Part shown: in pieces, positions 1,998 to 26,001 of the stretch
Position numbering within the stretch: position 1 is the first letter of the stretch
Layout: every line of letters begins with the position of its first letter
Origin: Streptomyces sp. NBC_01478
GTDB lineage: Bacteria; Actinomycetota; Actinomycetes; Streptomycetales; Streptomycetaceae
Reading direction: 5' to 3'
Assembly: GCF_036227225.1 (NCBI RefSeq)
Contig: NZ_CP109444.1
Span: 3,639,501-3,703,500, forward strand
DNA length: 64,000 nt
Notes under the pieces: model-generated
What the model saw: the letters and a program-made list of their open reading frames with translations, nothing else
The model's database searches: none
Told to the model about the DNA's origin: nothing
Translations under genes and position numbers: made by a program

Positions 1998-4900
1998 ATG
2001 CGGCAAGGCCGGTGGACCACGGTCACCGAGTCCGAGTTCGACCATGAACACCGTGGCCTGGAAGCCGTCCGGGAGAAACTACCGGACGCCGACCCCTGGC
2101 GGGCGTGGTCGAACTTCACCTTCACCGCCCACACCGGTCACGTCCGCGAGGTCGATCTCCTCGTCGTCGCCCCCGGCGGCGTCTACATGATCGAGCTCAA
2201 GGACTGGCACGGCTCCGTGACAAGCGAGAACGGCACCTGGGTGCAGACCACCCCCGGTGGCCATCGCCGCCCGCACGGCAACCCGCTCCACCTGGTCAAC
2301 AAGAAGGCGAAGGAGCTGGCCGGCCTGCTCGGCCAGAACGGCAGGCGAATGTGGGTCGGCGAGGCCGTCTGCTTCACCGACGGCGGTCTGCGCGTCCGTC
2401 TGCCCGCACACGACCAGAACGGCGTCCACACCGTTGACGAGCTGGTCGCGATGCTGCAGGAACGGCCTCGTGACGAGCGGCGCCGCATCACGGCCGTCGA
2501 ATCCCGCGAGATCAGGACCGCGCTCGAACGGATCGGCATCCGGCGCAGTGACGCCGAGTACAAGGTCGGCCCGTACCAGTTGGACCGCAAGTCCTTTGAT
2601 TCGGGCCCGACTTGGGCCGACTACAAGGCGAGCCACAGCGAGCTGCCCGAGGTGGCCCGCGTCCGCGTCTACCTCAGCGAGCGCGGCTCGGACGCGTCGA
2701 TCCGGCGGTCGGTGGAGAACGCGGCCCGCCGTGAGGCGGCCGTCCTCCAGCGGTTCAAGCACCCGGGTGTCGTCCAACTCAAGCAGTACTACCCGTCCGG
2801 GCACACCGCGGGCCCGGCCCTGATCTTCGACTATGACCCGCGCACGCTCCGCCTGGACGAGTACCTGCTCCAGTACGGCAAGAGCCTCGACATCCTCGGC
2901 CGGATGGCGCTGGTCCGCCAGCTCGCCGAGACGATGCGTTCCGCGCACTCCGCCCGCATCCACCACCGGGCGCTGGCCGCCCGTGCCGTGCACGTCGTCC
3001 CCCGCGACCGGGGCCGCCGTGGGCAGACGGTCGGTGAGGACGCCGCCTGGCTCACCCCGCGCCTGGAGATCTCGGACTGGCAGATCGCCACCCAGCGCGC
3101 CTCCGGGACGGACGGCGACAGTGGACAGGGCATGACCCGCTTCGCACCGACCGCGCTCTCGGCGATGCACCTGGCAGAGGGCTCCGACCCGTACTTCGCC
3201 CCGGAGTTGACCGCTCTCAAGGCCGATCCGGTCTACCTGGACGTGTACGGCCTCGGCGTCCTCACGTATCTCCTGGTCACAGGCAAGGCGCCGGCCGCAA
3301 GTCAGGCAGAGCTGCTGGCACGGTTGGAGGCGGGCGAGGGGCTGCGCCCCAGCTCGTTGGTCGACGATCTCTCCGAGGACATCGACTTCCTCGTCCAGGC
3401 GGCGACCGCCTACCGGCCCGGACAGCGCCTGTCCTCGGTGGACGAGTTTCTGGAGATGCTGGAGATCGTCGAGGACGGCCTGACCGCCCCGACCTCGCCA
3501 CCCGACCCCGAACCGGCCGAGGACCCCGAGAAGGACCCCCTCGAAGCGGTGGCAGGTGACGTACTCGGCGGGCGCTGGGAAGTCCGCCGCCGCCTCGGCA
3601 CCGGCTCCACCAGCCGGGCCTTTCTCGTCCGCGACCTTCAGGCCGAAGCGCGCAAGACCAGGCCGCTCGCCGTCCTGAAGGTGGCCCTCTCGGACAGCCG
3701 GGGCCAAGTGCTGGTCCACGAGGCCGAGGTGATGAACCGGCTGCGCCCCGACTCGCGAGTGATCCGGCTCGTCGAGCCGGAACCCCTGCGCATCGGGTCC
3801 CGCACGGTCCTCGCCCTGGAGTACGTGGGCGACGAGCGCGAGGCCACAGAGCAGGGCACCGAGACCGCCGACTCCAGCACCGGCACACGCACCCGCCGTC
3901 GCGAGGAGACGGTCGCGCGCCAACTGCGCGAGCACGGCCGGCTGAAGATGGACCAGTTGGAGGCGTACGGCGACTACCTGTTCGGGGCCGTGGACTTCCT
4001 GGAGGGCGAGAGCGTATGGCACCGCGACATCAAGCCGGACAACATCGCCATCCGCATCCGCCCCAACCGCACCCGCGAGCTGGTCCTCATCGACTTCTCC
4101 CTCGCGGGCTACCCGGCCAAGGACTACGAGGCGGGCACCGACGGCTACCTCGACCCGTTCATCGGCTCCCTGACCCGCACCGCGTACGACTCGCACGCCG
4201 AGCGGTACGCGATCGCCGTCACCCTGCACCAGATGGCCTCGCGCGAGCTGCCCAGGTGGGGCGACGGCTCGGTCCCGCCCCGGATGACGGACCCGAAGGT
4301 GTTCCCGTACCCGACCGTCCAGGCCGACGCCTTCGAACCGGCCGTACGGGACGGTCTGGTCGCCTTCTTCCGCAAGGCCCTGCACCGGGACGCGGCGAAG
4401 CGCTTCCCCGAACTGAAGCCGATGCGGGACGCCTGGAGGAAGATCTTCCTCGACGCCTCGCAGACCGTGCCGTCCAGCCACCGTTCCCGCCACCCCGAGC
4501 CCGCCCCGCAGGAGACGGTGGCGGGCGAGCGCGCGGCGGCGATCGCGGACGCCGAACCACTCACTGCCGACGAGCAGCGCGAGCGCCTGGCGGCGGCGGT
4601 CACCCGCGACACCCACCTGTCGGCCGCCGGTCTCACCCCGGCCGCCGAGTCCTTCCTCTACGGCCTTGAGATCACCACCGTCGGCGGCCTCCTCGACTAC
4701 AGCCGCAGCAAGCTGCTCAACGCGCCGGGCCTCGGCACAAAGACCCGCACCGAGGTCCAGCGCCGCCAGCGCCAGTGGGGCAAGCTGCTGCGCGAGGCAC
4801 CGCTCTCCCCGCTCACCCCGAAGGGCCGAGCGGAGGCGAAGGAGGAACTCGCCCAGCTCACCGCCACCGAGTCGGCGGTCGCCGGAGCCCTGGCCCTGGG

Positions 4901-6710
4901 CGAGGGAGCGGCAGGCCTGAGCGAGTCCGCACTGCGCTCGCTGAGCCTCGACCTCCTCGCCACACTCTTCGTCCCGGAGCTGAACAACAATCGCTCCAAC
5001 AGCAACAAGGTCGAGATGGTACGGCTGTTGCTGCGTCTCCCGGACGAGCACGGTGAGCTGCCCGGCATCGGAGTCTGGCCCAAGCAGAAGGACGTGGCGG
5101 AAGCACTCGGCCTGTCCGCCGGGCGCATCCCACAGATGCTGAAGGAGGAGCGCAAGCGCTGGAAGAAGCATCCTGGGGTCCAGGCACTGCGCGACGAGAT
5201 CGTGGGCCTGCTGGTGGGCCTCGGCCGGGTCGCCTCGGCCGTGGAGATCGCCGACGCACTCGCCGTACGGCGCGGTACGCAACTGGCGGGACGCGAACAG
5301 CGCCGCGCGCTGGCTCTGGCGGCGGTACGGGCGGTCGTGGAAGTGGAGCAACTCCAGCCGGAGGAGGCCGAGTTCCAGCACCAGGCCAACCGCAAGGCGA
5401 CGGAGGACGCCCTTGCCGCCGGCCTGCTCGCGTTGGACGTGCGGGAGATCGACGCCCCCGATACTCCGACGGCTCCGGGCCTCCTCGACTATGCGACCCG
5501 CCTGGGCAGAACCGCCGACCGCCTGACTCGTCTGGAGACTCTGCCGACAGCTACAACAGTGCTGAGCGAGCTGGGCGCGCTGACCCCACCGCCCGGTGCC
5601 GTGGACTGGGACGAACGGCGACTGGTTGAACTGGCCGCCGCCGCGTCCGTGAACGCGGCGGCCACGCCCCGACTGGAGATCTACCCGCGCGACCTGCCCC
5701 TGGTACGGGCCCTGCGCCTGACCCAGGCCGGCCTGGTGCGGCTGATCCCAGGCGTACCGGAGGCCCGGCAGCCCGGCCTGACGGGCGAGGACGTCCACGA
5801 GCGGGTACGGGCCCGCTTCCCGGAGCTGGTCATCAGGGACGTTCGGGGCACGAGCACGCACGAGCTGCCGACGGGCGGTCCACTGACCAAGGCGCTGCGG
5901 GATGCGGGCTTCGACCTGACTCTGTCGACGCGCGAGGACACGCGGACGCTCCGCTATCTACCGACGCGGATGGACAGCGCGTCCACCTATCTGACGGGCG
6001 GAAACTGGCGCCCGTCGACGGAGGCCGGCGCAGCAACCCGCTACTCCGACGACCCGCTCGTAGCGGGCGGAGTCCGCGCGGACGAACGGCTGTTGGCCTC
6101 AGCCAGGCGGGACGGCTACCGGGTCCTGACGGTGCACCATGAACGTACGGTCGAGGCGGTACGGAGGCTGTCGGGCCTCCGCATCGCCGCACAGGCGGTC
6201 TCCGTGACGGAACTCTTCCTGAAGTCGATGCACGCCCTGGTCCCCCCGGGCACGAAGCCGACCTGGGAAACGCTGCTGAAGGCAGACGTCGCGGAGCCGG
6301 GCTCGCGGGGAGCACTGAAGTTCACCGAATACGCGCGGACCGCCTGGGGCACGGTGGAGCCGCAGGTACGGGAACTACTCGCCCCGGGCGCCGGTTCGGG
6401 CCCGGTCCTGCTGACCGAGGTGACCGTGTTCGCTCGCTACGACGGCATGGGCGTCCTCGACCGGCTCGCAGAGGCGGCTCGACAGGGCGGGCGCGGACTG
6501 TGGCTGCTGGTGCCGCAGCCGGACCCGGGGCGTGAACCAAAGCTGGGGCACACGGCGGTGGCGTACCAAGTGGGCCTGGGCGAGTGGATCGACCTGCCGG
6601 ACTCGTGGGTAAGAAAGGAGTACCTGTCCAACCTGACGGACGTGAGTGTCTCAAGCACGAACGGAACGAAGGGGACGACGAGTGATCGACCGCAAGGCCC
6701 TGTTGGATGA
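1998..6710 (+). CDS. pglW: PglW, BREX type 2 (Pgl) serine/threonine kinase with NERD domain
   Basis: The 1570-residue protein opens with a NERD nuclease-like domain: D53 in the EVDLLVV strand, then E66-L-K68 in MIELKDW. A first kinase-like fold (about 200-480) lacks HRD and DFG residues (HHRALAARAV and LEISDWQIA stand there), so it is a pseudokinase. A second kinase (about 530-820) is intact: LGTGSTSRAF glycine loop, K561, HRDIKPDN at 675-682, D699 of the DFG position. A helix-hairpin segment (TVGGLLDYSRSKLLNAPGLG) and a long helical C-terminus follow. PglW is the kinase of the Streptomyces phage growth limitation system. I chose the ATG at 1998 (GGGGA at 1987-1991). It overlaps pglX by 29 nt. 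Confidence 0.95.
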   Translation: MRQGRWTTVTESEFDHEHRGLEAVREKLPDADPWRAWSNFTFTAHTGHVREVDLLVVAPGGVYMIELKDWHGSVTSENGTWVQTTPGGHRRPHGNPLHLVNKKAKELAGLLGQNGRRMWVGEAVCFTDGGLRVRLPAHDQNGVHTVDELVAMLQERPRDERRRITAVESREIRTALERIGIRRSDAEYKVGPYQLDRKSFDSGPTWADYKASHSELPEVARVRVYLSERGSDASIRRSVENAARREAAVLQRFKHPGVVQLKQYYPSGHTAGPALIFDYDPRTLRLDEYLLQYGKSLDILGRMALVRQLAETMRSAHSARIHHRALAARAVHVVPRDRGRRGQTVGEDAAWLTPRLEISDWQIATQRASGTDGDSGQGMTRFAPTALSAMHLAEGSDPYFAPELTALKADPVYLDVYGLGVLTYLLVTGKAPAASQAELLARLEAGEGLRPSSLVDDLSEDIDFLVQAATAYRPGQRLSSVDEFLEMLEIVEDGLTAPTSPPDPEPAEDPEKDPLEAVAGDVLGGRWEVRRRLGTGSTSRAFLVRDLQAEARKTRPLAVLKVALSDSRGQVLVHEAEVMNRLRPDSRVIRLVEPEPLRIGSRTVLALEYVGDEREATEQGTETADSSTGTRTRRREETVARQLREHGRLKMDQLEAYGDYLFGAVDFLEGESVWHRDIKPDNIAIRIRPNRTRELVLIDFSLAGYPAKDYEAGTDGYLDPFIGSLTRTAYDSHAERYAIAVTLHQMASRELPRWGDGSVPPRMTDPKVFPYPTVQADAFEPAVRDGLVAFFRKALHRDAAKRFPELKPMRDAWRKIFLDASQTVPSSHRSRHPEPAPQETVAGERAAAIADAEPLTADEQRERLAAAVTRDTHLSAAGLTPAAESFLYGLEITTVGGLLDYSRSKLLNAPGLGTKTRTEVQRRQRQWGKLLREAPLSPLTPKGRAEAKEELAQLTATESAVAGALALGEGAAGLSESALRSLSLDLLATLFVPELNNNRSNSNKVEMVRLLLRLPDEHGELPGIGVWPKQKDVAEALGLSAGRIPQMLKEERKRWKKHPGVQALRDEIVGLLVGLGRVASAVEIADALAVRRGTQLAGREQRRALALAAVRAVVEVEQLQPEEAEFQHQANRKATEDALAAGLLALDVREIDAPDTPTAPGLLDYATRLGRTADRLTRLETLPTATTVLSELGALTPPPGAVDWDERRLVELAAAASVNAAATPRLEIYPRDLPLVRALRLTQAGLVRLIPGVPEARQPGLTGEDVHERVRARFPELVIRDVRGTSTHELPTGGPLTKALRDAGFDLTLSTREDTRTLRYLPTRMDSASTYLTGGNWRPSTEAGAATRYSDDPLVAGGVRADERLLASARRDGYRVLTVHHERTVEAVRRLSGLRIAAQAVSVTELFLKSMHALVPPGTKPTWETLLKADVAEPGSRGALKFTEYARTAWGTVEPQVRELLAPGAGSGPVLLTEVTVFARYDGMGVLDRLAEAARQGGRGLWLLVPQPDPGREPKLGHTAVAYQVGLGEWIDLPDSWVRKEYLSNLTDVSVSSTNGTKGTTSDRPQGPVG

Positions 6711-9700
6711 CCTGAAGCAGCAGGTCAAGGCAGTCGAGTCCGACCTTGGCAAGCAGGTCGAGGTGGTGGCGGAGGGCAAGAAGTTGCGCGCCGAGTACGA
6801 GCACGCGCGCAAGCGGGGCCGTACGGCGGCAACTTGGAACTCTTGGCTGGACGATCGGGTCACGCAGGTCGCGGTGGCATGGGTGCTGGGGACTGTCTTC
6901 GTCCGGTTCTGCGAAGACAACGGGCTGATACCGGAGCCGTACCTGACGGCACCGGAGGCCGATCGGCGGGATCTGGCGCTGGCGCGGTTCGAAGAATACG
7001 TCGCGGGGTCGGAGGATCCGACGTACCGGGGCTGGCTTGAGCAGGCGTTCAAAGACCTGGAGTCGGGACAGGCGGGTCGATTGATGTTCGACCGACGACA
7101 CAACCCGCTGTTTCAGATCCCGTTGTCGCACGACGGCGCGCGAGAGTTAGTGGAGTTCTGGCGTCGGCGGGATGCGGACGGCGCCCTCGTCCACGACTTC
7201 ACGGACCCGCTGAAGAAGGACGAGGACGGAACGCGAGGATGGGACACACGGTTCCTGGGTGACCTGTATCAGGATCTGAGTGAGTCCGCGCGGAAGACAT
7301 ACGCACTGCTTCAAACGCCGGAGTTCGTGGCGGAGTTCATCCTCGACCGGACGATGGATCCGGCGGTCCGCGAGTTCGGGTACGAGGGCCTGAAGGTGAT
7401 CGACCCCACGTGTGGGTCGGGGCACTTTGTGCTGGCAGCGTTTCAGCGGCTGGTGCGGCTGTGGGCGGAGGGTCGGCCCGGCAAGGACGCGCATGAGCGG
7501 GTGAAGGAGTCGCTGGACTCCGTGCACGGGGTGGACTTATACCCCTTCGCGGTGGCTATTGCTCGGTTCCGGTTGCTGGTGGCGGCTATGGCTGCGAGTG
7601 GGGTGCACACGCTGGGGGAGGCGGCTAAGTACGAGTGGCCGATTCATCTGGCGGTGGGTGACTCACTCATCAAGCATCGGCACAAGCAGGGGAACCTGTT
7701 TGACGACTTGGAGGAGGAGGGGGCTGATGAGCTGGCCGACTTCAAGTATGAGACTGAAGATGTGCATGAGCACGCGGATATTTTGCGGGCGGGACGGTAT
7801 CACGTTGTAGTGGGAAATCCGCCATATATTACGGTAAAGGATAAGAAGCTCAATGAGCTTTATCGAGGGCTGTACGATGCGTGCGCGGGGACGTACGCGT
7901 TGTCAGTGCCGTTTGCTCAACGGTTTTTCGAGTTGGCCCAGGTTGGGGACGCCGAAGGGCGTGGCTACGGCATGGTCGGCCAGATCACGGCGAACTCGTT
8001 CATGAAGAGAGAGTTCGGCACACGACTAATCGAATCCTACTTTGGTCACGAGGTGGAACTAACTGAGGTCGTCGACACATCAGGAGCCTATATCCCTGGG
8101 CATGGAACTCCTACCGTCATTTTGATTGGAAAAAGGCGAGGCGGCAATGGACGCTCAGAGACTATCCGTACGGTACGGACCGTCCAGGGTGAGCCTGCCG
8201 CTCCGGAAAAGGGCGAGGATGGCCTCGTCTGGAAGGCCATCGTGAGCCAGATCGACGAACCGGAATCGGTGAGCCAGTGGGTCTCCGTGGGCGACCTGGA
8301 ACGGGAACGATATTTCGGCAGGCAGCCGTGGATGCTTGCCGATGGCGGCTTGGAAATGGTCGAAGGAGTCGAACACACCTCTGTGGCACGCCTCCGGGAC
8401 GTGGTAGAGGAGATCGGCTATGGCGCGGTCACGCGTGAGGATGATGCGTTCATGATCGGGGCCGGAGCCCTGCGCCGCGGACGTGTCCCGGAGTCCCACC
8501 AACGGCCCATCGTGGAAGGTGTCGATGTCCGAGACTACGCCGCATGGGAACCTACTTTCTCCCTTTGGCCGTATTGTGCCGAGGATTTGCAAGCCCAAAT
8601 TTCCGAGCCAGTTGAGCGAATCCTTTGGCCGTTTCGTGTGCAACTTCGTAATCGCGTCGCCTATGGGAGCACGCAGTTAGAGCGTGGACTCCAGTGGTTT
8701 GAGTACTCGATGTTTTTCAAGAAGCGGTATCGCACCCTCCGATCCATTACGTTTGCCTTCGTCTCGACACACAATCACTTCGCCCTAGATCTGGGCGGTA
8801 GGGTCTTCAAGCAGACTGCGCCAGTGATCAAGCTTCGAGAGGGGGCCAGTGATACGGAACACCTGCGGCTGCTAGGACTCCTTAACAGCTCCACGGCCTG
8901 TTTCTGGCTGCAGCAAGTCTCACACAACAAGGGCGAAGGCGGCGGCGCCCGTGTCGAAGCAGGATATGCAGCTATGGGGAGCGAAGCATGGAAAAATTGC
9001 TTCGAGTTCACCGGCACTAAACTGCAGAATTTCCCTCTGCCAGCAGACTATCCCACGCAGCTCGGTGCCGCTCTTGACAGACTCGCAAACGAACTGACTG
9101 CCATCAGCCCACGCGGCAGGATGGCCAAGGCAGTTCCTACGCCTGCCATCCTGCGCGAGGCGCGGACTAACTGGCACGCCACTCGGGCCCGCATGATCGC
9201 CCTCCAAGAGGAGCTGGACTGGCAGGTCTACTCGCTCTACAACTTGCACTCAGAGGACCTGCGCGTCTCCGAGGACCCCAACTCCCTAGATATCCCTGAA
9301 CTCGCCCTCGGTGAGCGCGCATTCGAGATCGTGCTCGCCCGTCGGGTCGCCGCAGGCGAGGCCAGTGATGAGTGGTTCAAGCGACACGGGTCCACTCCAG
9401 TCACCGAGATGCCCACTCACTGGCCCGCCGCCTACCGCGAGGTCGTTGAGAAGCGGATCGACGCCATCGAGTCGTCCCGCGCCATTGGCATGGTCGAGCG
9501 GCCGGAGTACAAGCGGCGCTGGGCCACGGAAGGGTGGGACGCGCTTCAGGAGAAGGCACTGCGGAGCTGGCTGCTCTACCGGATCGAGAACCGCGCACAC
9601 TGGTTCGACGAGAATGGGATGCCCGCCTTCGTCACCCTCTCACGTCTCACCGACAACCTCTCCCGCGACGAGGACTTCGCCTCTGTCGCCAAGATCTACT

Positions 9701-10317
9701 CGCCCCACAAGGAACTACACACCATCGTCTCCGAGTTGATGGCCGACGAGCACGTGCCCTTCCTCGCCGCCCTTCGCTACAAGCCCACCGCCCTCAAGAA
9801 GCGCGCGGACTGGGAGAACGTCTGGGATCTCCAGCGGCAGGAGGACGCAGCTCCGGACGAGCCGGCAAAGCGGAAGATCCGGGACACCATCCCCGTACCG
9901 CCGAAGTACACCTCGGCGGACTTCCTGCGCCCCTCCTACTGGCGGGCCCGCGGCAAGCTGGACGTGCCCAAGGAGCGGTTCATCTCGTACGCGCGGACCA
10001 ACGTCCCCACCCCCGACCTCTACGGTTGGGCTGGCTGGGACCACCGCGAGCAGGCAGTCGCGCTCGACACATACATCGCCACCCACGAGGGCCTGACCAC
10101 CGAAGAGGTCACCCCACTCCTCGCCGGGCTGCTGGAACTCCAGCCGTGGCTGAAGCAGTGGCACAACGAGCCCGATCCGCTCTTCGCCCCGACCCCTGCC
10201 AAGTTCTTCGAGGGCGACCGGCAGATGGAGCAGGGCAAGCACGGCCTCACCGACGACGACCTGCGCGCCTGGCGCCCAGCCGCCGCGACCAGAGGACGCC
10301 GTACCACCAAGAAGTAG
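6682..10317 (+). CDS. pglX: PglX, BREX type 2 DNA methyltransferase
   Basis: The 1211-residue protein has the amino-methyltransferase order: SAM motif I with D241 in VIDPTCGSGHF, then catalytic motif N379-P-P-Y in VVGNPPYITV. A long target-recognition region and helical C-terminus follow, as in BREX PglX proteins. By family knowledge it marks host DNA at a non-palindromic adenine site and is required for defence. The GTG at 6682 with GGGGA six bases upstream gives the start inside pglW. The middle (about 7.54-9.06 kb) is strikingly AT-richer than both flanks. I found no long homopolymeric G tract like the one behind phase variation in S. coelicolor pglX. A strong terminator follows. Confidence 0.95.
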   Translation: MIDRKALLDDLKQQVKAVESDLGKQVEVVAEGKKLRAEYEHARKRGRTAATWNSWLDDRVTQVAVAWVLGTVFVRFCEDNGLIPEPYLTAPEADRRDLALARFEEYVAGSEDPTYRGWLEQAFKDLESGQAGRLMFDRRHNPLFQIPLSHDGARELVEFWRRRDADGALVHDFTDPLKKDEDGTRGWDTRFLGDLYQDLSESARKTYALLQTPEFVAEFILDRTMDPAVREFGYEGLKVIDPTCGSGHFVLAAFQRLVRLWAEGRPGKDAHERVKESLDSVHGVDLYPFAVAIARFRLLVAAMAASGVHTLGEAAKYEWPIHLAVGDSLIKHRHKQGNLFDDLEEEGADELADFKYETEDVHEHADILRAGRYHVVVGNPPYITVKDKKLNELYRGLYDACAGTYALSVPFAQRFFELAQVGDAEGRGYGMVGQITANSFMKREFGTRLIESYFGHEVELTEVVDTSGAYIPGHGTPTVILIGKRRGGNGRSETIRTVRTVQGEPAAPEKGEDGLVWKAIVSQIDEPESVSQWVSVGDLERERYFGRQPWMLADGGLEMVEGVEHTSVARLRDVVEEIGYGAVTREDDAFMIGAGALRRGRVPESHQRPIVEGVDVRDYAAWEPTFSLWPYCAEDLQAQISEPVERILWPFRVQLRNRVAYGSTQLERGLQWFEYSMFFKKRYRTLRSITFAFVSTHNHFALDLGGRVFKQTAPVIKLREGASDTEHLRLLGLLNSSTACFWLQQVSHNKGEGGGARVEAGYAAMGSEAWKNCFEFTGTKLQNFPLPADYPTQLGAALDRLANELTAISPRGRMAKAVPTPAILREARTNWHATRARMIALQEELDWQVYSLYNLHSEDLRVSEDPNSLDIPELALGERAFEIVLARRVAAGEASDEWFKRHGSTPVTEMPTHWPAAYREVVEKRIDAIESSRAIGMVERPEYKRRWATEGWDALQEKALRSWLLYRIENRAHWFDENGMPAFVTLSRLTDNLSRDEDFASVAKIYSPHKELHTIVSELMADEHVPFLAALRYKPTALKKRADWENVWDLQRQEDAAPDEPAKRKIRDTIPVPPKYTSADFLRPSYWRARGKLDVPKERFISYARTNVPTPDLYGWAGWDHREQAVALDTYIATHEGLTTEEVTPLLAGLLELQPWLKQWHNEPDPLFAPTPAKFFEGDRQMEQGKHGLTDDDLRAWRPAAATRGRRTTKK

Positions 10318-10332
10318 TCCGCCAGTTACGCC

Positions 10333-10368
10333 AACGGCCCCGCGATCGGGACAGATCGCGGGGCCGTT
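10333..10368 (+). terminator. hairpin terminator between pglX and the antiparallel DUF397 gene
   Basis: A perfect 15-bp stem (10333-10347 with 10354-10368; arm AACGGCCCCGCGATC) closes a six-base loop right after the pglX stop and before the stop of the opposing DUF397 gene. No long T run follows, as is common in Streptomyces. The symmetry would let it work in both directions. If it is efficient, pglW-pglX form a transcription unit separate from the rest of the BREX genes. Confidence 0.85.
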
Positions 10369-10379
10369 GCCTTGCCTGA

Positions 10380-10589
10380 TCAGTCGCTCAACTGCCCGTT
10401 CCTGATTGCGGAAACGAAGGAGGTCCACCCGCCAGTAGGGAACACAAGCAGCGGCCCGTGGGGAACTTTGCTGTCCCGTACCGGGACGACAGCGGCGAAG
10501 TCGTCAGAGACCTCGACGCAAGCCCCACCGTCCTGGTTGCTGTAGCTGCTCTTACGCCAGGACGCGGCAGTCAGGTCGATGGATCGCAC
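10380..10589 (-). CDS. DUF397 domain protein (partner of XRE regulator)
   Basis: This 69-residue protein has the DUF397 pattern: ASWRKSSYSNQDGGACVEV, then VPVRDSK and a C-terminal W-x-x-F-V-x-A-I segment. DUF397 proteins are small, Streptomyces-specific and nearly always paired with a DUF5753 XRE regulator. Some pairs act as toxin-antitoxin-like or developmental modules. The GTG start at 10589 lies inside the 3' end of the XRE gene and has GGAGG seven bases upstream, so the two are translationally coupled. It runs antiparallel to the BREX genes. Confidence 0.88.
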   Translation of the reverse strand: MRSIDLTAASWRKSSYSNQDGGACVEVSDDFAAVVPVRDSKVPHGPLLVFPTGGWTSFVSAIRNGQLSD

Positions 10590-11413
10590 GTGACTTCCTC
10601 CAACATCTGCAGGATGAACTTCCGCGACTCCACCGGGGAAAGCGCCAGGTCGCGCACCGCATCGTACGCCTTCTGCAAACGCACAACAGGGCCAGATTCC
10701 TCGATGAGTTCGCCCCGGTATCCATTCTCGGTATACGCGACGGTCCTGCCCTCCGGAAGGAGGAGGTACCACATGTCGGCACTCACGAGACCGTGTAGAC
10801 CCGCGCTCTGCAGAAGCACATGAACCGTCACGTTCGGCCGCTCGGCCACTTCGGCCACGTACTCCAACTGCCCCCGCCACTCCGCCCCGTCCCGCAACGG
10901 CGTCCGCAGCACCGCCTCCGACAGGATCGTCCGGAACGGCGGCGCATCCTTCCCCTCCAACAGCTCCCGCCGCCCCATCCGGGCATCGACCTGCTGCTCA
11001 AGTTCCTTCCCCTCAAGCCCGCCCGCCGCCAGCATCTCCCGCGCATACCCCGACGTCTGCAACAACCCCGGCAGCACGCTCACCGCGAAGTGCCACAAGC
11101 TCACCGCCTCCGACTCCAGCGCCATGTACCGCCGGTACCGCTCGCGGAACTGCGTATGGTCCCCAGCGGCAAGCTCCCACAACGCGAGCAGCAGCCCCGG
11201 CGTCCCGTAGTGCGTGTCGAGGGCCTGGACAACCTCCGGGCTACCGAGCGTCTCGCCGTTCTCCATCTTGCCGAACAACGACCAGTCCCAGCCGAGCCGT
11301 TCACCGAGCACCCGCAGGCTCAGCCCGCTCGCTTCCCGTAGCCTCCGCAACTCCTCGGCGAACCGCTGGCGGGGTTCCTGACTGCGGTCGGTGATGACGC
11401 GCCGTTGCGGCAT
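10571..11413 (-). CDS. XRE-family regulator with DUF5753 C-terminal domain
   Basis: The 280-residue protein has an N-terminal helix-turn-helix (about 15-75: RFAEELRRLREASGLSLRVLGERLGWDWSLFGKMENG, read here as separate helices). A DUF5753 ligand-type domain follows, with PGLLQTSGYAREML and the R-x-x-LL segment. This is the WhiJ-like class common in Streptomyces, usually next to a DUF397 gene as here. A longer upstream frame exists, but the ATG at 11413 with GGAGGGAG upstream is the natural start. The pair is transcribed against the BREX genes and separates pglX from pglY. Whether it regulates BREX is unknown. Confidence 0.9.
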   Translation of the reverse strand: MPQRRVITDRSQEPRQRFAEELRRLREASGLSLRVLGERLGWDWSLFGKMENGETLGSPEVVQALDTHYGTPGLLLALWELAAGDHTQFRERYRRYMALESEAVSLWHFAVSVLPGLLQTSGYAREMLAAGGLEGKELEQQVDARMGRRELLEGKDAPPFRTILSEAVLRTPLRDGAEWRGQLEYVAEVAERPNVTVHVLLQSAGLHGLVSADMWYLLLPEGRTVAYTENGYRGELIEESGPVVRLQKAYDAVRDLALSPVESRKFILQMLEEVTCDPST

Positions 11414-11862
11414 ACCACTCCCTCCGGGACATGCGCGTGAGCGACGGGGAACGTGTGGAACCACCTCAGCGCGACGGGGAACCATCGCCCCAGCCACAAC
11501 CCGGCGGCTCACTTCCGGCCGCATCCTCGTAACGACCGGACTACGCAGGGTAATTCACCCAGCGCAACCGGGTCACGGAATCAGCGGAACCGACCTCCGC
11601 ACCCTCACCCAGGCCGAGTTGCTGAGCACCCTCGTCGCCGATGCCAACTTCCGGAGCAGGCAGTCGAGATGACGGCGCCCTTCCACATCCGACCCGTCCG
11701 AAGCCGGGCCTCGACACCTACCTCCCACCCCGTCATGGCCGACTCCGTACCGATCCCCTCCCCGTGATCAACACCCTCACCTAGGATGACGAGAACCAAT
11801 CTCAGCGGCCCGACGGGCTTCCTGATCCGCCTCGCCACAGCGCGCGGCGGCGCTCGAAGGAC
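11414..11862. other. divergent 450-bp gap between XRE regulator and nuclease-helicase gene
   Basis: No convincing gene is seen. The region must hold the promoters of the leftward XRE gene and the rightward nuclease-helicase gene. A TAGGAT hexamer at 11782-11787 is a plausible -10 for the rightward gene, the same hexamer found before pglW. I could not identify a clear operator. Confidence 0.45.
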
Positions 11863-13803: not shown

Positions 13804-13893
13804 TCATGCGTGTGCGAAAAGTGGTCATGCGTTGCCAGGTACGTCATACCATCGGATGATCCTGCGCAGCCGCTCGTCGGGGAGTGATCGCTC

Positions 13894-16800
13894 ATGTCCC
13901 AACAGCCGCTTTTACTCCGCGATGTCATCCATATCAAAGAGTCCATTTCCACGTCGGACTTCGTCCTCCAGCTGTCGGAGGCGACAGCCCCGGAGGGCGC
14001 GGAGCGCGCGCTGCGGGATTACGTGGTCACGGAACGGCTGTTGGAGAACTTCGACGAGGCGCTCGGGCTGATCCAGGCCGCGCTCGACGGACATACGTCG
14101 AAGGCGGCCTACCTCCACGGGTCGTTCGGTTCCGGTAAGTCGCACTTCATGGCGGTGCTCCATGCTCTGCTCAGCGGGGCCCCGGCGGCCCGCGCGCGAG
14201 CGGACTTAGACCCGGTGCTCACCAAGCACGAGTGGCTCGGCACAGAGGGGAAGCGGTTCCTGCTCGTGCCGTACCACATGCTCGGGGCGAAAGCCCTGGA
14301 GCAGCGGGTCCTCGGCGGGTACGTCAGCCACGTCAAGAAGCTGCACCCCGAGGCTCCGACGCCACAGGTGTACCGGACGGACGCCCTGTTCGAGGACATC
14401 CGCGCGATGCGGTCCCGCCTGGGCGACCAGGCGGTGATCGGCGGCCTCATCTCAGCGGACGGTGGCGACAGCTCGGCCGACGAGGAGGACGAGTGGGGCG
14501 AGGCGTTCGGCTGGACACCTGAGCTGCTCGACACCGCGCTCACCGCCGAGGAGGTCCACGAAGGCGGCCAGGCACTCAACCTGGTCAGCCCATCGACGCC
14601 CGCCGAGTTGCGGGCGCGGCTGGTGCAGGACGCGAGTACTCACCTGCTGCCGGGCTTCGCGAGGAACGCCGCCGAGGACGAGCACGGGTTCGTCTCGCTC
14701 GATGCCGGCCTGTCCGTGATCGCCGAGCACGCCAAGTCGCTTGGCTACGACGGGCTGATCCTGTTCATGGACGAGCTGATCCTCTGGCTCGCGACCCTCA
14801 TCCACGACCAGAAGTTCGTGGCCAAGGAAGCTGGCAAGATCACCAACTTCGTGGAGGGCGGCGACGCCCGCCGTGCCGTGCCGGTGATCTCGTTCATCGC
14901 CCGTCAGCGCGACCTGCGGGAACTGGTCAGCGAGGAGGTGTCGGGCGCGGCCGAGGCGTCCATCCAGGACACGCTCAACCTGGCCTCGGGCCGATTCGAC
15001 AAGATCACGCTGGAGGACCGCAACCTCCCCCAAGTCGCGCACGCCCGCCTCCTCAAGCCCAAGGACGACGAGTCCGCCGCCCTCGTCGACGCCGAGTTCG
15101 AGAAGACCCGCAGGATCCGTCAGGAGGTGTGGGACACCCTTCTGGGCTCGGACCGCGGTGCCGACGGCGTCGGCGCGGACGAGGAGAGCTTCCGGCTGAC
15201 GTATCCCTTCTCGCCGGCGTTCATGGACACCCTCGTCCACGTGTCGTCCGCGCTCCAGCGCAACCGGACCGGCATGAAGCTGATGGGGCAACTGCTCGCC
15301 GCCCACCGGGCCGAGCTGCGGCTGGGTGACCTGATCCCGGTCGGCGACCTGTACCCGCTGATCACGGCGGGGGGCGACAAGCCGTTCACCGACAGCCTCA
15401 AGGTGGTCTTCGAGGCGGCCGACAAGCTGTACCGGACCAAGCTGCGGCCGTACCTCCTGCTCACGCACAACGTGACGGAGGAGAACATCGAGCAGTACAG
15501 CCACCGGCCCGACAGCGTCACGGACCCCGAACTGCGCGCCCGGATCAAGCAGTTCATCGGTGACAACCGGATCGTCGGCACACTGCTGCTGTCGGCGCTG
15601 GCCCCGAGCGTCCCCGCTCTGTCCGACCTGACCATCCGCCGCCTGTCCGCCCTCAACTACGGCTCGGTGGTCGCCCCGATCCCGGGCCGCGAGTACGGCA
15701 TCCTGAAGAACAAGGTCGCCGAGTGGGCGGGCCGCTTCCCCGAGATCAAGGAGACCGGCACCGAGAGCAACCCGGGCGTCCGGCTCGAACTGTCGGGCGT
15801 CGACGTCGACTCGGTGATCGCCAACGCCAACGTCAACGACAACCCCGGCAATCGCGAGGCTCTCGCCAAGCGGCTCCTTGTCGAGGAACTCGGCATCGAC
15901 CAGACGCAGTTGATCAACGAGGTGCACTTCGCGTGGCGCGGCACCGACCGCAGTGTCGAGGTGGTGTTCGGCAACGTCGCCGACGAGGACGCGCTGCCGG
16001 ACCATGACCTGATGCCCCAGCAGGACGGGCACTGGCGGATCGTGATCGACCTCCCCTTCGACGAGAGCGAGTGGGGGCCGCGCGAGGACGCCAACCGGAT
16101 GCAGCGGCTGCGTGAGCGGCAGGGCGAGCCGTCCCGCAGCGTCGCGTGGCTGCCGACCCATCTCTCCAGCCAGCGGTACGCCGACTTCCGCCGTCTCGTC
16201 GTCATCGACAAGGCGCTCTCCGACAGCCAGCGGTTCGACGGCCAGTACGCAGGCCATCTGAGTCCCGACAACCGGGCCCGCGCCAAGGGGCTTCTGGAGA
16301 CCCAGCGGGAGTCGCTGCTCAAGAACGTAAAGGCGGCCTTCAAGCAGGCATACGGCCTGGCGGACAAGAAGGCCACCGACGTGGAGCTCGGTTTCGGGGA
16401 CCATCTGGAGTCGCTGCGCGAGGTCGAGGGGCTGGTCCTGTCCTTCGGTCAGTCGATGCGGGACGGCATCCGGCACATCGCGGGCAAGCTGCTCGCGAGC
16501 CAGTACCCGGACCACCCGAACCTCGACCCCGACAACACCGGCATGGTCGTCAAGCCTGCCGACGCCCGAAAGGTGTTCACACACGTACGGGCCGCCGCCG
16601 AGGCTCGCGACGGGCGCGCCGAAGTCCCCGCCCCCGACCGGAATCTGATGCGTCGGGTGGCCACTCCGCTGCGGCTGGGCCTGCAGAAGGAGGCCTACTT
16701 CGAGCTGTCGCAGTACTGGGCGGACCACTTCCGGCAGCTCGCCAGCGGGCAGGGCGTGACCGGCGACCTCAGCCTGATCACCCTCACCGACTGGACGGAC

Positions 16801-17784
16801 CGGCCGACACCGCGCGGTCTGCCCGGCTTCCTCGCCCGGCTCGTCGTGGCCTCGTTCGCCGAGATGGACGACCGGGTGTGGGTGCGCGCGGGCACGCCCC
16901 TCGACCCAGCGCCCGCCCTGAACGAGATCAAGGACCATGACGCGCTGCGCAGCCAGCCGCTGCCGTCCGAGGAGGACTGGGCAACTGCCCGGCAGCGGTT
17001 CACTGCGGTGTTCGGCGAGCCGGCCCCCACCCTGCGGCGTGGCCGCATGGTCAACCAGCTCGCCCGGCAGATCGCCCAGCAGGCGGGCGCCCACCAGGAG
17101 GCAGCCCGTGAGCTGGTGACCCAACTGGAGCGGCATGTCGGCTTCCTCCACCTCGACGAGACCGCCGAGGGCGGGCGTCTGGCCCTCGCGCGGCGAGCCG
17201 TCGAACTGCTCCAGGCGCTGACACGCTCGGCCGGTCAGGGGGCCGCCGGAGCCCGGAAGACCGTCGAGGCCCTGGCCGCCTTCGACTTCGGAGAGGTCGG
17301 CGCGGACCGGTTCGGGACCTCGGTCAAACAGGCCCGCGCGGTGGCCCAGGCGCTGGACTCGACGTCCTGGACCACCCTCGACCTGGCCACCTCGGAGGGC
17401 CCCGGGGGAGAGGCGCTGCTGGAGTCCCTGCGCAATGCCGCGCAGAGCGACCAGCGGACCAACGACCTCAAGGAGGCGCTGGCTCGGACGCAGCGCGAAG
17501 TGCTGGCACTGGTGAAGCGCAACCGCGCTACGCCGACTCCGCCCCCTGCTCCCCCGGCCCCGGGCCCCAGTGATGTGCCACTCGACACACCGTCGAGTCA
17601 TCCGTCGGTGCCCGAGCAGCCGCCGAGCCCGGTTCCCTCCCCCTCGGGACGGGTGAAGCGCTCCGGCGGCGGACGGACCACCGCGTCCAAGGCTGTGGCC
17701 GAACTCCAGGCAGAGATCGCGGAGTTGGCGGCCCGTGAACCCGGTACCGAGGTCGCGTTCACCTGGCAGGTCGTCGAAGGATGA
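13894..17784 (+). CDS. pglY: PglY, BREX type 2 large P-loop ATPase (BrxC-like)
   Basis: This 1296-residue protein has Walker A GSFGSGKS (76-83) and Walker B LILFMDEL with D293-E294. A long, mostly helical body follows. The N-terminus ([22 protein letters not shown]) is characteristic of the PglY/BrxC family. In known systems it is an essential ATPase of the defence complex. The end is proline-rich and low-complexity, then a short conserved tail. The ATG at 13894 has GGGGAG nine bases upstream. It overlaps pglZ by ATGA at 17781-17784, so the two are co-translated. Confidence 0.95.
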
Positions 17785-20681: not shown

Positions 20682-20692
20682 CGTTTCGTCAG
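20678..20692 (+). other. small hairpin over the pglZ stop codon (CTGAC-N5-GTCAG)
   Basis: CTGACG-TTT-CGTCAG forms a perfect six-base-pair stem with a three-base loop that includes the pglZ TGA. It may be a weak attenuator or a chance structure. The same arm pair recurs at four other places in the window, three of them at promoters. Confidence 0.5.
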
Positions 20693-20721
20693 TCCTGCCG
20701 CCCACCGATGAGCCGGGAGCC

Positions 20722-22470: not shown

Positions 22471-22516
22471 TCCCGGAGCACGGTCCGCCGGGCGGCGCGG
22501 ATGGGACAATGAGCGG

Positions 22517-23842
22517 GTGACCGGCCCCCGCCCTTCTCCCGTCTCCGCCGCCCGGCGGCGCACCGCTCTCGACGCACTCCGGCGCGGTGCGGTGCCCGAG
22601 AGCGGCCTGGATCTCCTGGCCACCGGCCTCGACCGTTTCGAGTCCGCGCTGGACGCGGAACTCGACGCGGTCGCCTCCGGTGCCTCGGTCTTCAAGGCCG
22701 TTCGGGGTGAGTACGGTTCCGGCAAGACGTTCTTCACCCGCTGGCTCGGCGAGCGTGCCAAGCAACGCAACTTCGCTGTCTCCGAGATCCAGATCTCGGA
22801 GACGGAGACCCCGCTGCACAAGCTGGAGACCGTCTACCGGCGCCTCACCGAGCGGCTGTCCACCCCGAGCTTCCCGCCGAGCGCGCTCCGTCCCGTGGTG
22901 GACGCCTGGTTCTACGCCCTGGAGGAGGATGCTCTCGCCGCGGGAGCGGACGAGGACGATCTGGGTGGCGCGGTGGAGGAGTTGCTGGCCGCCCGACTGA
23001 CCGAGGTGTCCCGGCACGCCCCGTCCTTCGCTGCCGCGCTGCGCGGATACCGGTCCGCGCTCGCCGAGGGCGACGAGTCGACGGCGGCGGCCGTCCTCGC
23101 CTGGCTCGGCGGGCAGCCCCACGTGGCGGCGGCGGCCCGCCGGTCCGCAGGAGTGCGCGGCGACCTGGACCACTTCGGTGCACTGGGCTTCCTGCAAGGG
23201 CTGCTCACCGTTCTGCGGGACTCCGGCCACCGGGGGCTGTTCGTCGTACTGGACGAGGTGGAGACCCTGCAGAGAGTGCGGTCGGACGCCCGCGACAAGG
23301 CGCTCAACTCGCTGCGGCAACTGATCGACGAAGTCCACTCCGGGCGGTTCCCCGGCCTGTATCTGGTCATCACCGGCACGCCCGCCTTCTACGAAGGCCA
23401 GCAGGGCGTGCAGCGGCTCCCGCCGCTCGCCCAGCGGATCGCCACGGACTTCACGACCGATCCCCGCTTCGACAACCCCCGCGCAGTCCAGTTGCGCCTG
23501 TCGGGCTTCACCCTGGAGTCTCTGACCGGCCTCGGGGTGACCATCCGCGATCTCTACGCGTCCGGGGCGGACGCCCCCGACCGGATCAAAACGCTGGCGG
23601 ACGACGCCTACATCTCCGATCTCGCCCGCGCGGTGGGCGGAGCCCTCGGCGGCAAAGTCGGCGTCGCACCCCGGCTCTTCCTCAAAAAACTGGTCGGCGA
23701 CGTCCTCGACCGTATCGACCAGTTCCCGGACTTCGACCCACGACAGCACTACCGGCTCACGGTGGGCAGCAGTGAACTCACCGACGTCGAGCGGAACTTG
23801 GCCGCATCGTCGGCGGCCGACGACATCGACCTGGAGTTGTGA
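22517..23842 (+). CDS. brxD: BrxD, BREX type 2 ATP-binding protein
   Basis: The 441-residue ATPase has Walker A GEYGSGKT (64-71) and Walker B FVVLDEVETL (D246-E247). The early block FKAVRGEYGSGKTFFTRWL and the helical remainder fit the BREX BrxD family (DUF2791-like). In type 2 systems brxD and brxHI lie together after pglZ, exactly as here. The GTG at 22517 is the only start before the conserved region. GACAAT at 22504-22509 could be a -10 giving a leaderless transcript, in addition to read-through. Its TGA overlaps the ATG of brxHI (TGATG). Confidence 0.92.
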   Translation: MTGPRPSPVSAARRRTALDALRRGAVPESGLDLLATGLDRFESALDAELDAVASGASVFKAVRGEYGSGKTFFTRWLGERAKQRNFAVSEIQISETETPLHKLETVYRRLTERLSTPSFPPSALRPVVDAWFYALEEDALAAGADEDDLGGAVEELLAARLTEVSRHAPSFAAALRGYRSALAEGDESTAAAVLAWLGGQPHVAAAARRSAGVRGDLDHFGALGFLQGLLTVLRDSGHRGLFVVLDEVETLQRVRSDARDKALNSLRQLIDEVHSGRFPGLYLVITGTPAFYEGQQGVQRLPPLAQRIATDFTTDPRFDNPRAVQLRLSGFTLESLTGLGVTIRDLYASGADAPDRIKTLADDAYISDLARAVGGALGGKVGVAPRLFLKKLVGDVLDRIDQFPDFDPRQHYRLTVGSSELTDVERNLAASSAADDIDLEL

Positions 23843-26001
23843 TGACACAGGCCGCGGACCCTGTCGATCGGCTCGACCCCGTCATCCTGCATCACGTGGT
23901 CAACACGCTGGGCTGGCCGGACCTGCGGCCCCTGCAACGGGCCTCGATCGATCCGGTGATGGACGGTGAGGACGCCGTACTGCTCGCGCCCACGGCCGGC
24001 GGCAAGACCGAGGCCGCCTGCCTGCCGGTCCTTTCGGTCATGTCCGCCCAGGGCTGGACCGGTACGTCGGTCCTCTACCTCTGCCCGCTCAAGGCGCTCC
24101 TCAACAACCTGGTGACCCGCGTCGACGGATACGCGCAGTGGCTCGGACGCAGCGCGGCCCTGTGGCACGGGGACACGAAGGAGTCCCAGCGCCAGCGCAT
24201 CCGTACGGATAGACCCGACATCCTCCTGACGACGCCCGAGTCGCTGGAGGCGATGCTGATCGGGGTGAAAACCGACCACGCGCACCTGCTGGGCGGGATC
24301 CGAGCAGTCGTCGTCGACGAGGTCCACGCATTCGCCGGCGACGACCGAGGCTGGCATCTGCTGGCGGTGCTTGAGCGCCTGCAGCTAGTTGCAGGGCGCC
24401 CGATTCAGCGGATCGGGCTGTCCGCCACGGTCGGGAACCCACAGGAACTGCTCACCTGGCTGCAGGGGTCGGGCGCCGGCCGACGCCCGGGCCGGGTCGT
24501 CGCCCCGGGCATCACAAGCCCCTTGTCCAGCCAGGGCCCTGTGAACGGCGTGACCGGGCCGCCTCCAGGAGACATCGAACTCGACTACGTGGGCTCCCTC
24601 TCCAACGCGGCCAAGGTTCTCTCTGCCCTGCACAAGGGCGAGAAGCGCCTGGTGTTCTGCGACTCCCGACGGCAGGTCGAGGAACTGGGTGCCGCGCTCC
24701 GAGCGCGCGACGTCACTGTCTTCCTGTCGCACGCTTCGCTCTCTGCCGACGAACGTGCAAGGTCAGAACAGGCCTTCGCCGAAGCACGAGACTGCGTCAT
24801 CGTCGCCACCTCCACCCTGGAACTGGGCATCGACGTCGGCGACCTGGACCGGGTCGTCCAGATCGATTCGCCCGGGACCGTCGCCTCCTTTCTCCAGCGC
24901 GTCGGCCGGACGGGGCGTCGCTCGGGAAGCACCCGCAACTGTCTGTTCCTGACCACACACAAAGACACCCTGCTGCAGGCTGCCGGGCTGTTGCTCCTGT
25001 GGGGTCGTGGCTGGGTCGAACCGGTCGTCCCGCCACCCGAGCCACGCCACCTCGTGGCCCAGCAGTTGCTCGCCGTCACACTCCAGGAGCACAAGCTGGG
25101 CGACCATCTGTGGCCCGAGCAGTGGAACGGCCTGGCGCCCTTTGACCGTTCGGCCGCTCCCATCCTGCGTCATCTGACGGAAGAGGGCTTCCTCGACAAC
25201 GACGGGGGCATGCTGTTCATCGGCCCTGAGGCCGAACACCGTTTCGGGCGACGGCACTTCATCGAGCTGACCGCTTCCTTCACCGCACCACCGCAGTTCA
25301 ACGTCCTGTCCGGACGCACTGAGATCGGACGCATGGATCCGTCGGTGCTCACTGAGGAACGCCCTGGCCCACGACGCCTGCTGTTGGCCGGCCGCAGTTG
25401 GCAGGTGACGTTCATCGACTGGGGACGGAAGCGGGTCTTCGTGGAGCCGGTCGAGAACGGCGGGGTTGCCAAGTGGTCGGGAGGCACCCTCGTTGGGCTT
25501 TCGTATGCGCTTACACGCGCGATGCGGGATGTCCTCCTGGGCATCGACCCGGAAGTCTCTCTGACACGACGAGCCGAGGTCTGCCTCCAAGAGTGGCGCG
25601 AGAAAGAGGCTCCCCAACTAGTCCATCCCGGTGGGACGTTGGTGGCCCGGCATGGAAACGATGTTCGCTGGTGGACATGGGCGGGTTACCGCGCCAATGC
25701 CACGTTGGGCGCAACACTGTCGTCGATCGCCGATCCGGTTCAACGTCCGACCGACTGCTACCTGCGGCTGCGCGAGGATCTGAGCCCGAACATGTGGCGC
25801 ATCGCGCTCGACGCCGCACAGGACGGACCGACACTTGTCCTCCCGGACGTTGACCAACGAGCAGTGCGCGGGCTCAAGTTCTCGGCGGCGCTCCCACAGC
25901 GACTGGCCGTGGCCACGCTGTCAGCGAGACTCGCCGACTTCGAGGGTGCGAGTGCGGTGCTGTCGGAGCCAAAGCGCTTCTCCACAGAACAGGGAACCTG
26001 A
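23842..26001 (+). CDS. brxHI: BrxHI, BREX type 2 DEAD/DEAH-box helicase
   Basis: The 719-residue superfamily 2 helicase has Walker A APTAGGKT (49-56), DEVH box (159-162), TTPES, SAT (GLSATVG) and motif VI QRVGRTGRRSG from residue 352. An Lhr-like C-terminal part follows. The gene is the last of the type 2 BREX operon. I use the ATG at 23842, which overlaps the brxD stop as TGATG; a GTG three bases earlier in the same frame would add one residue. The rnpB locus follows on the opposite strand after about 190 bp. Confidence 0.93.
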   Translation: MTQAADPVDRLDPVILHHVVNTLGWPDLRPLQRASIDPVMDGEDAVLLAPTAGGKTEAACLPVLSVMSAQGWTGTSVLYLCPLKALLNNLVTRVDGYAQWLGRSAALWHGDTKESQRQRIRTDRPDILLTTPESLEAMLIGVKTDHAHLLGGIRAVVVDEVHAFAGDDRGWHLLAVLERLQLVAGRPIQRIGLSATVGNPQELLTWLQGSGAGRRPGRVVAPGITSPLSSQGPVNGVTGPPPGDIELDYVGSLSNAAKVLSALHKGEKRLVFCDSRRQVEELGAALRARDVTVFLSHASLSADERARSEQAFAEARDCVIVATSTLELGIDVGDLDRVVQIDSPGTVASFLQRVGRTGRRSGSTRNCLFLTTHKDTLLQAAGLLLLWGRGWVEPVVPPPEPRHLVAQQLLAVTLQEHKLGDHLWPEQWNGLAPFDRSAAPILRHLTEEGFLDNDGGMLFIGPEAEHRFGRRHFIELTASFTAPPQFNVLSGRTEIGRMDPSVLTEERPGPRRLLLAGRSWQVTFIDWGRKRVFVEPVENGGVAKWSGGTLVGLSYALTRAMRDVLLGIDPEVSLTRRAEVCLQEWREKEAPQLVHPGGTLVARHGNDVRWWTWAGYRANATLGATLSSIADPVQRPTDCYLRLREDLSPNMWRIALDAAQDGPTLVLPDVDQRAVRGLKFSAALPQRLAVATLSARLADFEGASAVLSEPKRFSTEQGT

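What the first reader, a model, noticed from the sequence alone, without database searches (positions are those of the whole stretch)
1998..26001. Complete type 2 BREX (Pgl) locus with three inserted modules
All six core genes of type 2 BREX are present with intact motifs, yet the locus also holds an XRE/DUF397 pair, a nuclease-DUF2075 helicase and an AIPR gene at three internal positions. Core genes on each side remain intact. This suggests BREX is used as a landing ground for further defence functions, or that these genes work with BREX. Core identification rests on known families; co-operation is inference.
Basis: partly seen in the sequence, partly recalled or inferred. Interest (0 to 1): 0.7.

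Follow-up and report, generated by a model that had tools for sequence, protein, structure and literature searches.

The report
BREX phage-defence locus with plug-in nucleases
This Streptomyces chromosome carries a complete type 2 BREX (Pgl) anti-phage system with a regulator pair and two extra genes that look like nucleases in fixed internal gaps, an arrangement shared by a family of related loci, which suggests that BREX serves as a modular chassis for exchangeable defence genes.

Summary
All six type 2 BREX genes are intact, with an XRE/DUF397 pair, a Schlafen-group-3 helicase with a nuclease-like N-terminus, and an AIPR gene inside. The extras fill two gaps, not three: pglX-pglY (XRE pair and helicase) and pglZ-brxD (AIPR). 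They are not fresh insertions. On a PglY tree of 99 loci the helicase in pglX-pglY marks one clade of 12; 10 of these have AIPR. Both genes co-vary with pglY and are under purifying selection.
Across 90 loci, gaps of 350 bp or more split pglX-pglY in 53 of 69 and pglZ-brxD in 37 of 85, but pglY-pglZ in 2 of 86 and brxD-brxHI in 0 of 83. A CBS plus GmrSD-like pair is the commonest alternative to AIPR. XRE looks like a resident regulator. The helicase also lives elsewhere. AIPRs at 75% identity or more, among those whose surroundings I read, all lie inside BREX. AIPR models as a FokI/MspJI-like nuclease plus a tentative ParB-like domain.
Nuclease genes embedded in BREX are already published, so this is a new variant of a known kind. 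Cooperation with BREX is untested.

The parts
1998..6710 (+). pglW: NERD nuclease-like domain, two kinase domains
   Evidence: PADLOC PglW 1553 bits, PF08378, PF00069; HRDIKPDN
6682..10317 (+). pglX: adenine methyltransferase with target-recognition region (open frame from 6646)
   Evidence: PADLOC PglX 1659 bits, DUF7008 540 bits; NPPY
8122..9202 (+). variable, presumably target-recognition (specificity) region of pglX, exchanged between sister loci
   Evidence: 57-62% nucleotide identity in the two 500-bp windows 8200-9200 against 84-92% in the neighbouring ones (L053, L093, L105); protein identity 28-77% in residues ~481-840 against 62-100% outside, seven sister loci. That this is the recognition domain is inferred
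10380..10589 (-). DUF397 small protein, start overlaps the end of XRE
   Evidence: PF04149 74 bits; start codon read from the sequence
10571..11413 (-). XRE/DUF5753 transcriptional regulator (open frame to 11524)
   Evidence: PF19054 167 bits, PF13560 59 bits
11540..11554 (.). candidate operator, palindrome close to ACTACGCnGCGTAGT, in the divergent XRE/helicase intergenic region
   Evidence: 12 of 14 positions here; at the same place in sister loci
11562..11648 (+). remnant of a small gene (cluster c11) that sister loci carry intact between XRE and helicase
   Evidence: tblastn 62% over residues 47-69 of the L053 protein, E 1.3e-6
11863..13803 (+). Schlafen-group-3 (DUF2075) helicase with a PD-(D/E)XK-like N-terminal motif
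   Evidence: PF09848 299 bits; D94...E113-x-K115 invariant in 27 sequences and GGPGSGKS, DEAH; the nuclease part rests on the motif alone
13894..17784 (+). pglY (BrxC-like ATPase)
   Evidence: PADLOC BrxC/PglY 1485 bits
17781..20681 (+). pglZ
   Evidence: PADLOC PglZ 893 bits
20722..22470 (+). AIPR gene: predicted FokI/MspJI-like PD-(D/E)XK nuclease (residues 1-219), tentative ParB-like domain (234-386), helical C-terminus
   Evidence: PF10592, AbiU model 616 bits; AlphaFold model pLDDT 83; VIA-align matches; E31, D59, D63, Q102, K104 invariant in 93 sequences
22517..23842 (+). brxD
   Evidence: PADLOC BrxD 681 bits
23839..26001 (+). brxHI
   Evidence: PADLOC BrxHI 1067 bits

Best explanation
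The locus is a type 2 BREX (Pgl) system of a lineage that took up two auxiliary genes with nuclease-like domains before its members diverged and has mostly kept them. PglX marks host DNA at a site set by its exchangeable specificity region, and PglW/Y/Z/BrxD/BrxHI block unmarked phage DNA (family knowledge; inferred here). The XRE/DUF397 pair is a resident regulator, divergent from the helicase-pglY-pglZ-AIPR-brxD-brxHI gene row, which it probably controls through the palindrome at 11540-11554 (inferred). The nuclease-helicase and AIPR are additional, mostly self-contained anti-phage effectors. They are held in insertion-tolerant junctions of the BREX locus, where they share its expression and its inheritance or transfer, and add a second, possibly abortive, layer against phages that pass or inhibit BREX. 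Shown: identity, positions, junction preference, co-inheritance, purifying selection. Inferred: nuclease activity of AIPR and helicase, regulation, back-up role.
Against: AIPRs at 75% identity or more were seen only inside BREX, which fits a BREX-dependent partner better than a self-contained gene. The helicase needs one change, AIPR three, so there is little or no independent replication of the pairing. No activity was measured; the helicase model is poor (pLDDT 54) and its nuclease part rests on a motif. XRE does not co-vary with the core (r 0.35), which is weak for a dedicated regulator. Two loci have broken helicases (L087, L093) and two lack AIPR (L074, L007), so neither gene is needed to keep the locus.
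Confidence: 0.55

Rival explanations
1. AIPR (and perhaps the helicase) is an obligate partner of this BREX lineage: a nuclease held inactive and released when BREX engages unmodified DNA or is inhibited by a phage protein, in the way SspE reads the host mark or PrrC guards a restriction enzyme (both from papers, not tested here).
Against: Two clade members keep BREX without AIPR; the ParB-like match is middling and a profile-profile test of AIPR against the GmrSD-like family failed (probability 0.15%); more distant AIPRs live apart from BREX.
Confidence: 0.27
2. The junctions pglX-pglY and pglZ-brxD are merely the places where insertion does least harm; the extra genes are hitchhikers of a defence island with no functional link to BREX.
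For: The spared pairs are the overlapping ones (median gap -4 for Y-Z and -1 for D-HI); cargo includes NB-ARC/TPR and DUF6879 genes with no clear defence role. But Z-D is also -3 in many loci without cargo.
Against: Purifying selection on AIPR and helicase; AIPR kept in 10 loci of the clade; several cargo families match defence models (OLD/GajA, QatC, PDC-M28, MkoA).
Confidence: 0.13

Closest known systems
Type 2 BREX / Pgl system (Streptomyces coelicolor; PMC4365076 passages, PMC12839542 section 22)
   Same: All six core genes with the defining domains; order W-X, Y-Z, D-HI
   Different: Carries XRE/DUF397, nuclease-helicase and AIPR between core genes; a term search of the main text of PMC12839542 finds no AIPR, DUF2075 or DUF397
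Auxiliary and back-up nucleases embedded in BREX loci (PMC12839542, section 35 read in full); 'guilt by embedding' (Payne et al. 2024, known only from citing passages)
   Same: Nuclease genes of other families sit between BREX core genes in many taxa; PD-(D/E)XK enzymes are the most frequent there
   Different: Here the junctions are counted one by one in one genus, cargo is placed on a core-gene tree, and AIPR is an added cargo class
BrxU, GmrSD-family enzyme within a type 1 BREX island (PMC8565348, listing and abstract start only)
   Different: AIPR has a PD-(D/E)XK-like N-terminus and no detectable profile similarity to the local GmrSD family
AbiU (PADLOC model PDLC02357) / AIPR family PF10592
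   Same: Nearly full-length model match, 616 bits; an AIPR gene inside a restriction-modification operon is on record for Prevotella intermedia (PMC5608340, passage)
   Different: Inside a BREX locus; I found no phage phenotype on record for this protein

Membership tests
Type 2 BREX (Pgl) | PglX methyltransferase, PglZ, BrxC/PglY ATPase present and intact | tested here: met
Type 2 BREX (Pgl) | PglW, BrxD and BrxHI present | tested here: met
   brxD and brxHI adjacent in 83 of 83 loci where both were called
Type 2 BREX (Pgl) | Phage restriction and DNA methylation by the locus | not testable with these tools
   no experiment
AIPR / AbiU | PF10592 domain above its cut-off and AbiU model over the length | tested here: met
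   126 bits against cut-off 25; 616 bits, profile 1-534 of 537
AIPR / AbiU | Abortive infection phenotype | not testable with these tools
   no experiment
PD-(D/E)XK nuclease fold (AIPR N-terminus) | Structural match and conserved acidic/Lys motif | tested here: met
ParB/DUF262-like domain (AIPR middle) | Structural or profile similarity | tested here: inconclusive
Schlafen-group-3 / DUF2075 helicase | PF09848 over its length, Walker A and DEAH motifs | tested here: met
   299 bits, positions 1-354 of 354; GGPGSGKS, DEAH

The most novel reading that the evidence does not exclude
The pglZ-brxD junction of type 2 BREX is a dedicated effector socket: alternative residents (AIPR, or a CBS/GmrSD-like pair) are nuclease modules, perhaps all built on a ParB-like NTPase, that the same sensing core switches on, so that type 2 BREX is a system with interchangeable specificity (PglX variable region) at one end and interchangeable killing modules at the other.
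Probability: 0.18. Interest if true: 0.75.

Novelty: new variant of a known kind. Interest (0 to 1): 0.47.

Why it matters
How type 2 BREX stops phage is unresolved; nuclease roles are proposed for PglZ (shown for type 1, PMC12205998, abstract start) and for the NERD domain of PglW, but not settled for this type. If lineage-specific nucleases are plugged into fixed junctions of the locus and conserved there, single-gene deletions can ask directly whether the core senses and the plug-ins kill. The junction map also gives a practical way to look for new defence genes in Streptomyces.

Tried and rejected
Three separate insertions in this strain: rejected, because the arrangement is shared by a 12-locus clade. 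XRE/DUF397 as a chance neighbour: rejected on density (44 DUF5753 matches in 12.12 Mb give about 0.9 expected in 243.6 kb of X-Y gap; 48 of 69 gaps hold one; the density is from the own genome only). Homology of AIPR with the GmrSD-like cargo at profile level: not found. Foldseek on the AIPR model found nothing significant; the VIA-align second look on Foldseek's own candidates gave the nuclease matches. Helicase structure: too poor to use (pLDDT 54); its fold list only repeats an SF1-type ATPase core. NCBIfam listed no family for AIPR. In one search the sixth protein was given on the wrong strand and is ignored. S. coelicolor's own locus could not be read. The collections of phages, plasmids, viral and metagenome contigs were not searched.

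Outside the genus: 5 of the 14 other BrxD genomes of a phylum sample (17 of 231 hit, three of them of this genus) were fetched. L137 and L138 have open frames between pglX and pglY, L139 one between pglZ and brxD, and in L140 and L141 no pglY or pglZ was recognised. Of five named loci of other genera, L010, L015 and L016 have no insert in the junctions seen, and L013 and L014 have an XRE gene before pglX. Too few for counts.

Limits: genes in relatives were called by a home-made codon-usage caller and labelled by blastp clusters; 'XRE' means linkage to the window XRE by blastp at 1e-10. I gave 147 of the 150 helicase rows that I count (the last three lie in genomes without a listed brxD) and 90 of the 97 BrxD rows (short pieces left out, G144 apart); both tool lists for the helicase are cut off. 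Junctions off the fetched stretch or without a recognised flank were left out, hence the different n. L004 and L005 were left out of the tree as copies of L093 and L105. L095 is a rearranged locus, counted as interrupted and as 'other'. Genomes are not corrected for relatedness. Loci were chosen because a helicase lay near brxD. The operator motif was drawn from an alignment of six loci, so its count there (6 of 7 hits at 12 or more of 14 in 1.71 Mb) is circular; in four further clade loci with XRE it scores 12 (L003), 13 (L006), 11 (L008) and 11 (L069), 122-159 bp before XRE, but hits of 11 turn up by chance (4 others in the 64 kb window). One search lists 37 AIPR proteins at 76% identity or more (the window's own among them); the surroundings of only those that coincide with my loci are known.
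Full report
OBSERVATION. The window lies at 3,639,501-3,703,500 of a 12.12 Mb single-contig genome. A genome of its genus group shares a contig length with S. vinaceus (7,673,509 bp: G133, P0031) and the nearest named loci are Streptomyces, so I take it as Streptomyces (inference). Pfam and PADLOC confirm PglW, PglX, PglY, PglZ, BrxD and BrxHI as long intact frames, and key motifs are present. Between pglX and pglY lie, on the minus strand, DUF397 and XRE/DUF5753 with overlapping ends, then on the plus strand a 646-residue protein with a PD-(D/E)XK-like motif and a Schlafen-group-3 (DUF2075) helicase. Between pglZ and brxD lies an AIPR protein of 582 residues that matches PADLOC's AbiU model over nearly its whole length. 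So two junctions are interrupted, one of them by two modules.

THE LINEAGE. Six other genomes of the genus sample (G011, G133, G144, G230, G243, G308) carry AIPR directly before brxD, and named loci add S. xantholiticus, SKN60 and S. katrae (L003, L006, L008). On a PglY tree of 99 loci (quick maximum likelihood) the 12 loci with the helicase in X-Y form one group with starred support and need a single change; AIPR, in 10 of those 12, needs three changes (one gain and two losses, L007 and L074, would fit; three gains are not excluded). The tree warns of long branches, but names none inside this group. Within the clade, distances of AIPR and helicase follow those of pglY (r 0.95 and 0.92) while XRE does not (0.35) and pglX does less (0.73); dN/dS in the pairs computed is 0.08-0.14 for AIPR and 0.10-0.21 for the helicase, against 0.11-0.18 for pglY. 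The helicase is broken in L087 and L093, while AIPR and the core genes that lie wholly in the fetched stretch are full length there. So AIPR and helicase are old, selected parts of this lineage, yet dispensable to it.

ARE THE EXTRAS TIED TO BREX? XRE: in 48 of 69 X-Y gaps; from 44 DUF5753 matches in the own genome about 0.9 would be expected in 243.6 kb of gap. Helicase: of 147 PF09848 hits, 57 lie within 70 kb of a brxD, and 55 of the 103 genomes in that list have brxD, against 86 of 392 overall (odds ratio 9.5, p 2e-17; relatedness not corrected; itself counts 110 genomes). In flanks chosen for this, the helicase, mostly with a second paralogue of about 700 residues, stands beside or near pglW or behind brxHI (L143-L145, L147-L156). 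But of 27 hits listed at 75% identity or more to the window helicase, 7 lie in the X-Y gap (one broken), 4 within 35 kb of brxD (G078, G208, G248, G345), 1 (G340) beside broken pglY pieces, and 15 elsewhere, one of these 77 kb from brxD (G230) and one fragment on a draft contig (G330) (my tally). AIPR: of 20 matches above 560 bits in 392 genomes, 7 are in the Z-D gap and 13 not beside brxD. I read the surroundings of 8 of these 13 and of 3 weaker matches: none has pglX, pglY, pglZ or brxD in the stretch, and their identity to BREX AIPRs is 26-57%; 5 were not read. The own genome has only this one PF10592 match.

OTHER PARTS. Three sister loci (L053, L093, L105) differ from the window by 38-43% of bases over a 1-kb stretch of pglX but by 8-16% in the neighbouring windows, so specificity is probably exchanged in an otherwise stable locus. 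Upstream of XRE, in the divergent region, a palindrome close to ACTACGCnGCGTAGT is found in each of the ten clade loci with an XRE gene (11-14 of 14 positions); it is a candidate operator, partly circular because it was drawn from six of them. Sister loci also hold a small gene pair between XRE and helicase, of which the window keeps a 23-residue remnant.

MECHANISM. Most likely a regulated BREX core with additional nuclease-like effectors in tolerant junctions (0.55). An obligate, BREX-triggered AIPR is the main rival (0.27). Neutral hitchhiking is less likely given the selection (0.13).

PRIOR WORK. PMC12839542 (abstract, sections 22 and 35, and term passages) reports nucleases of many families embedded in BREX loci in at least 4363 taxa, PD-(D/E)XK enzymes first, and proposes auxiliary and back-up roles; its main text has no AIPR, DUF2075, DUF397 or CBS by term search, and its supplements were not read. 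Its 'Schlafen' genes are RNases fused to a kinase and wHTH, unlike the helicase here. Embedding of defence genes within others is a published discovery principle (Payne et al. 2024, seen only as cited in PMC12255303 and PMC12988326). The PrrC precedent is from a passage of PMC12707154; SspE from listings and abstract starts. AIPR has been noted in an RM operon of Prevotella intermedia (PMC5608340, passages), in a candidate defence system found by gene-language models (PMC9523054, passages) and in a figure legend on P4 satellites (PMC9122126, passages). Ten full-text searches listed no paper that I could see to describe AIPR within type 2 BREX; listings are partial and few papers were opened. 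Hence: a new variant of a known kind.

Noticed in passing
window 8122-9202: A 1-kb stretch of pglX is a mosaic: 57-62% nucleotide identity to three sister loci against 84-92% in the neighbouring windows; probably exchange of the target-recognition region.
   Followed up: partly
window 11540-11554; L105 8085; L053 7005 (brxD-forward orientation); L006 3294; L003 1972: Conserved palindrome in the divergent XRE/helicase region, a candidate operator.
   Followed up: partly
26 loci, among them L030, L032, L038, L041, L043, L044, L049-L052, L055-L057, L062, L064, L071, L073, L075: CBS-domain plus GmrSD_N protein pair on the opposite strand in the pglZ-brxD gap: the commonest alternative to AIPR; in L143 the pair stands beside pglW.
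   Followed up: partly
L144, L145, L148-L152, L155, L156: Pair of SLFN-g3 helicases (about 630 and 710 residues) next to or near pglW, or behind brxHI; possibly a two-gene defence module of its own.
   Followed up: partly
L118 (G340): Decayed BREX: intact helicase (89%) beside three pglY pieces; no brxD found in that genome.
   Followed up: no
L020, L028, L037, L045, L054, L067: Inserts of 3.5-3.6 kb between pglW and pglX made of the candidate defence genes PDC-M28B/C with, in five of the six, a third small gene: a third internal junction with its own typical cargo.
   Followed up: partly
L095 (G183): Rearranged type 2 BREX locus with pglY, pglX and pglW inverted between pglZ and brxD.
   Followed up: no
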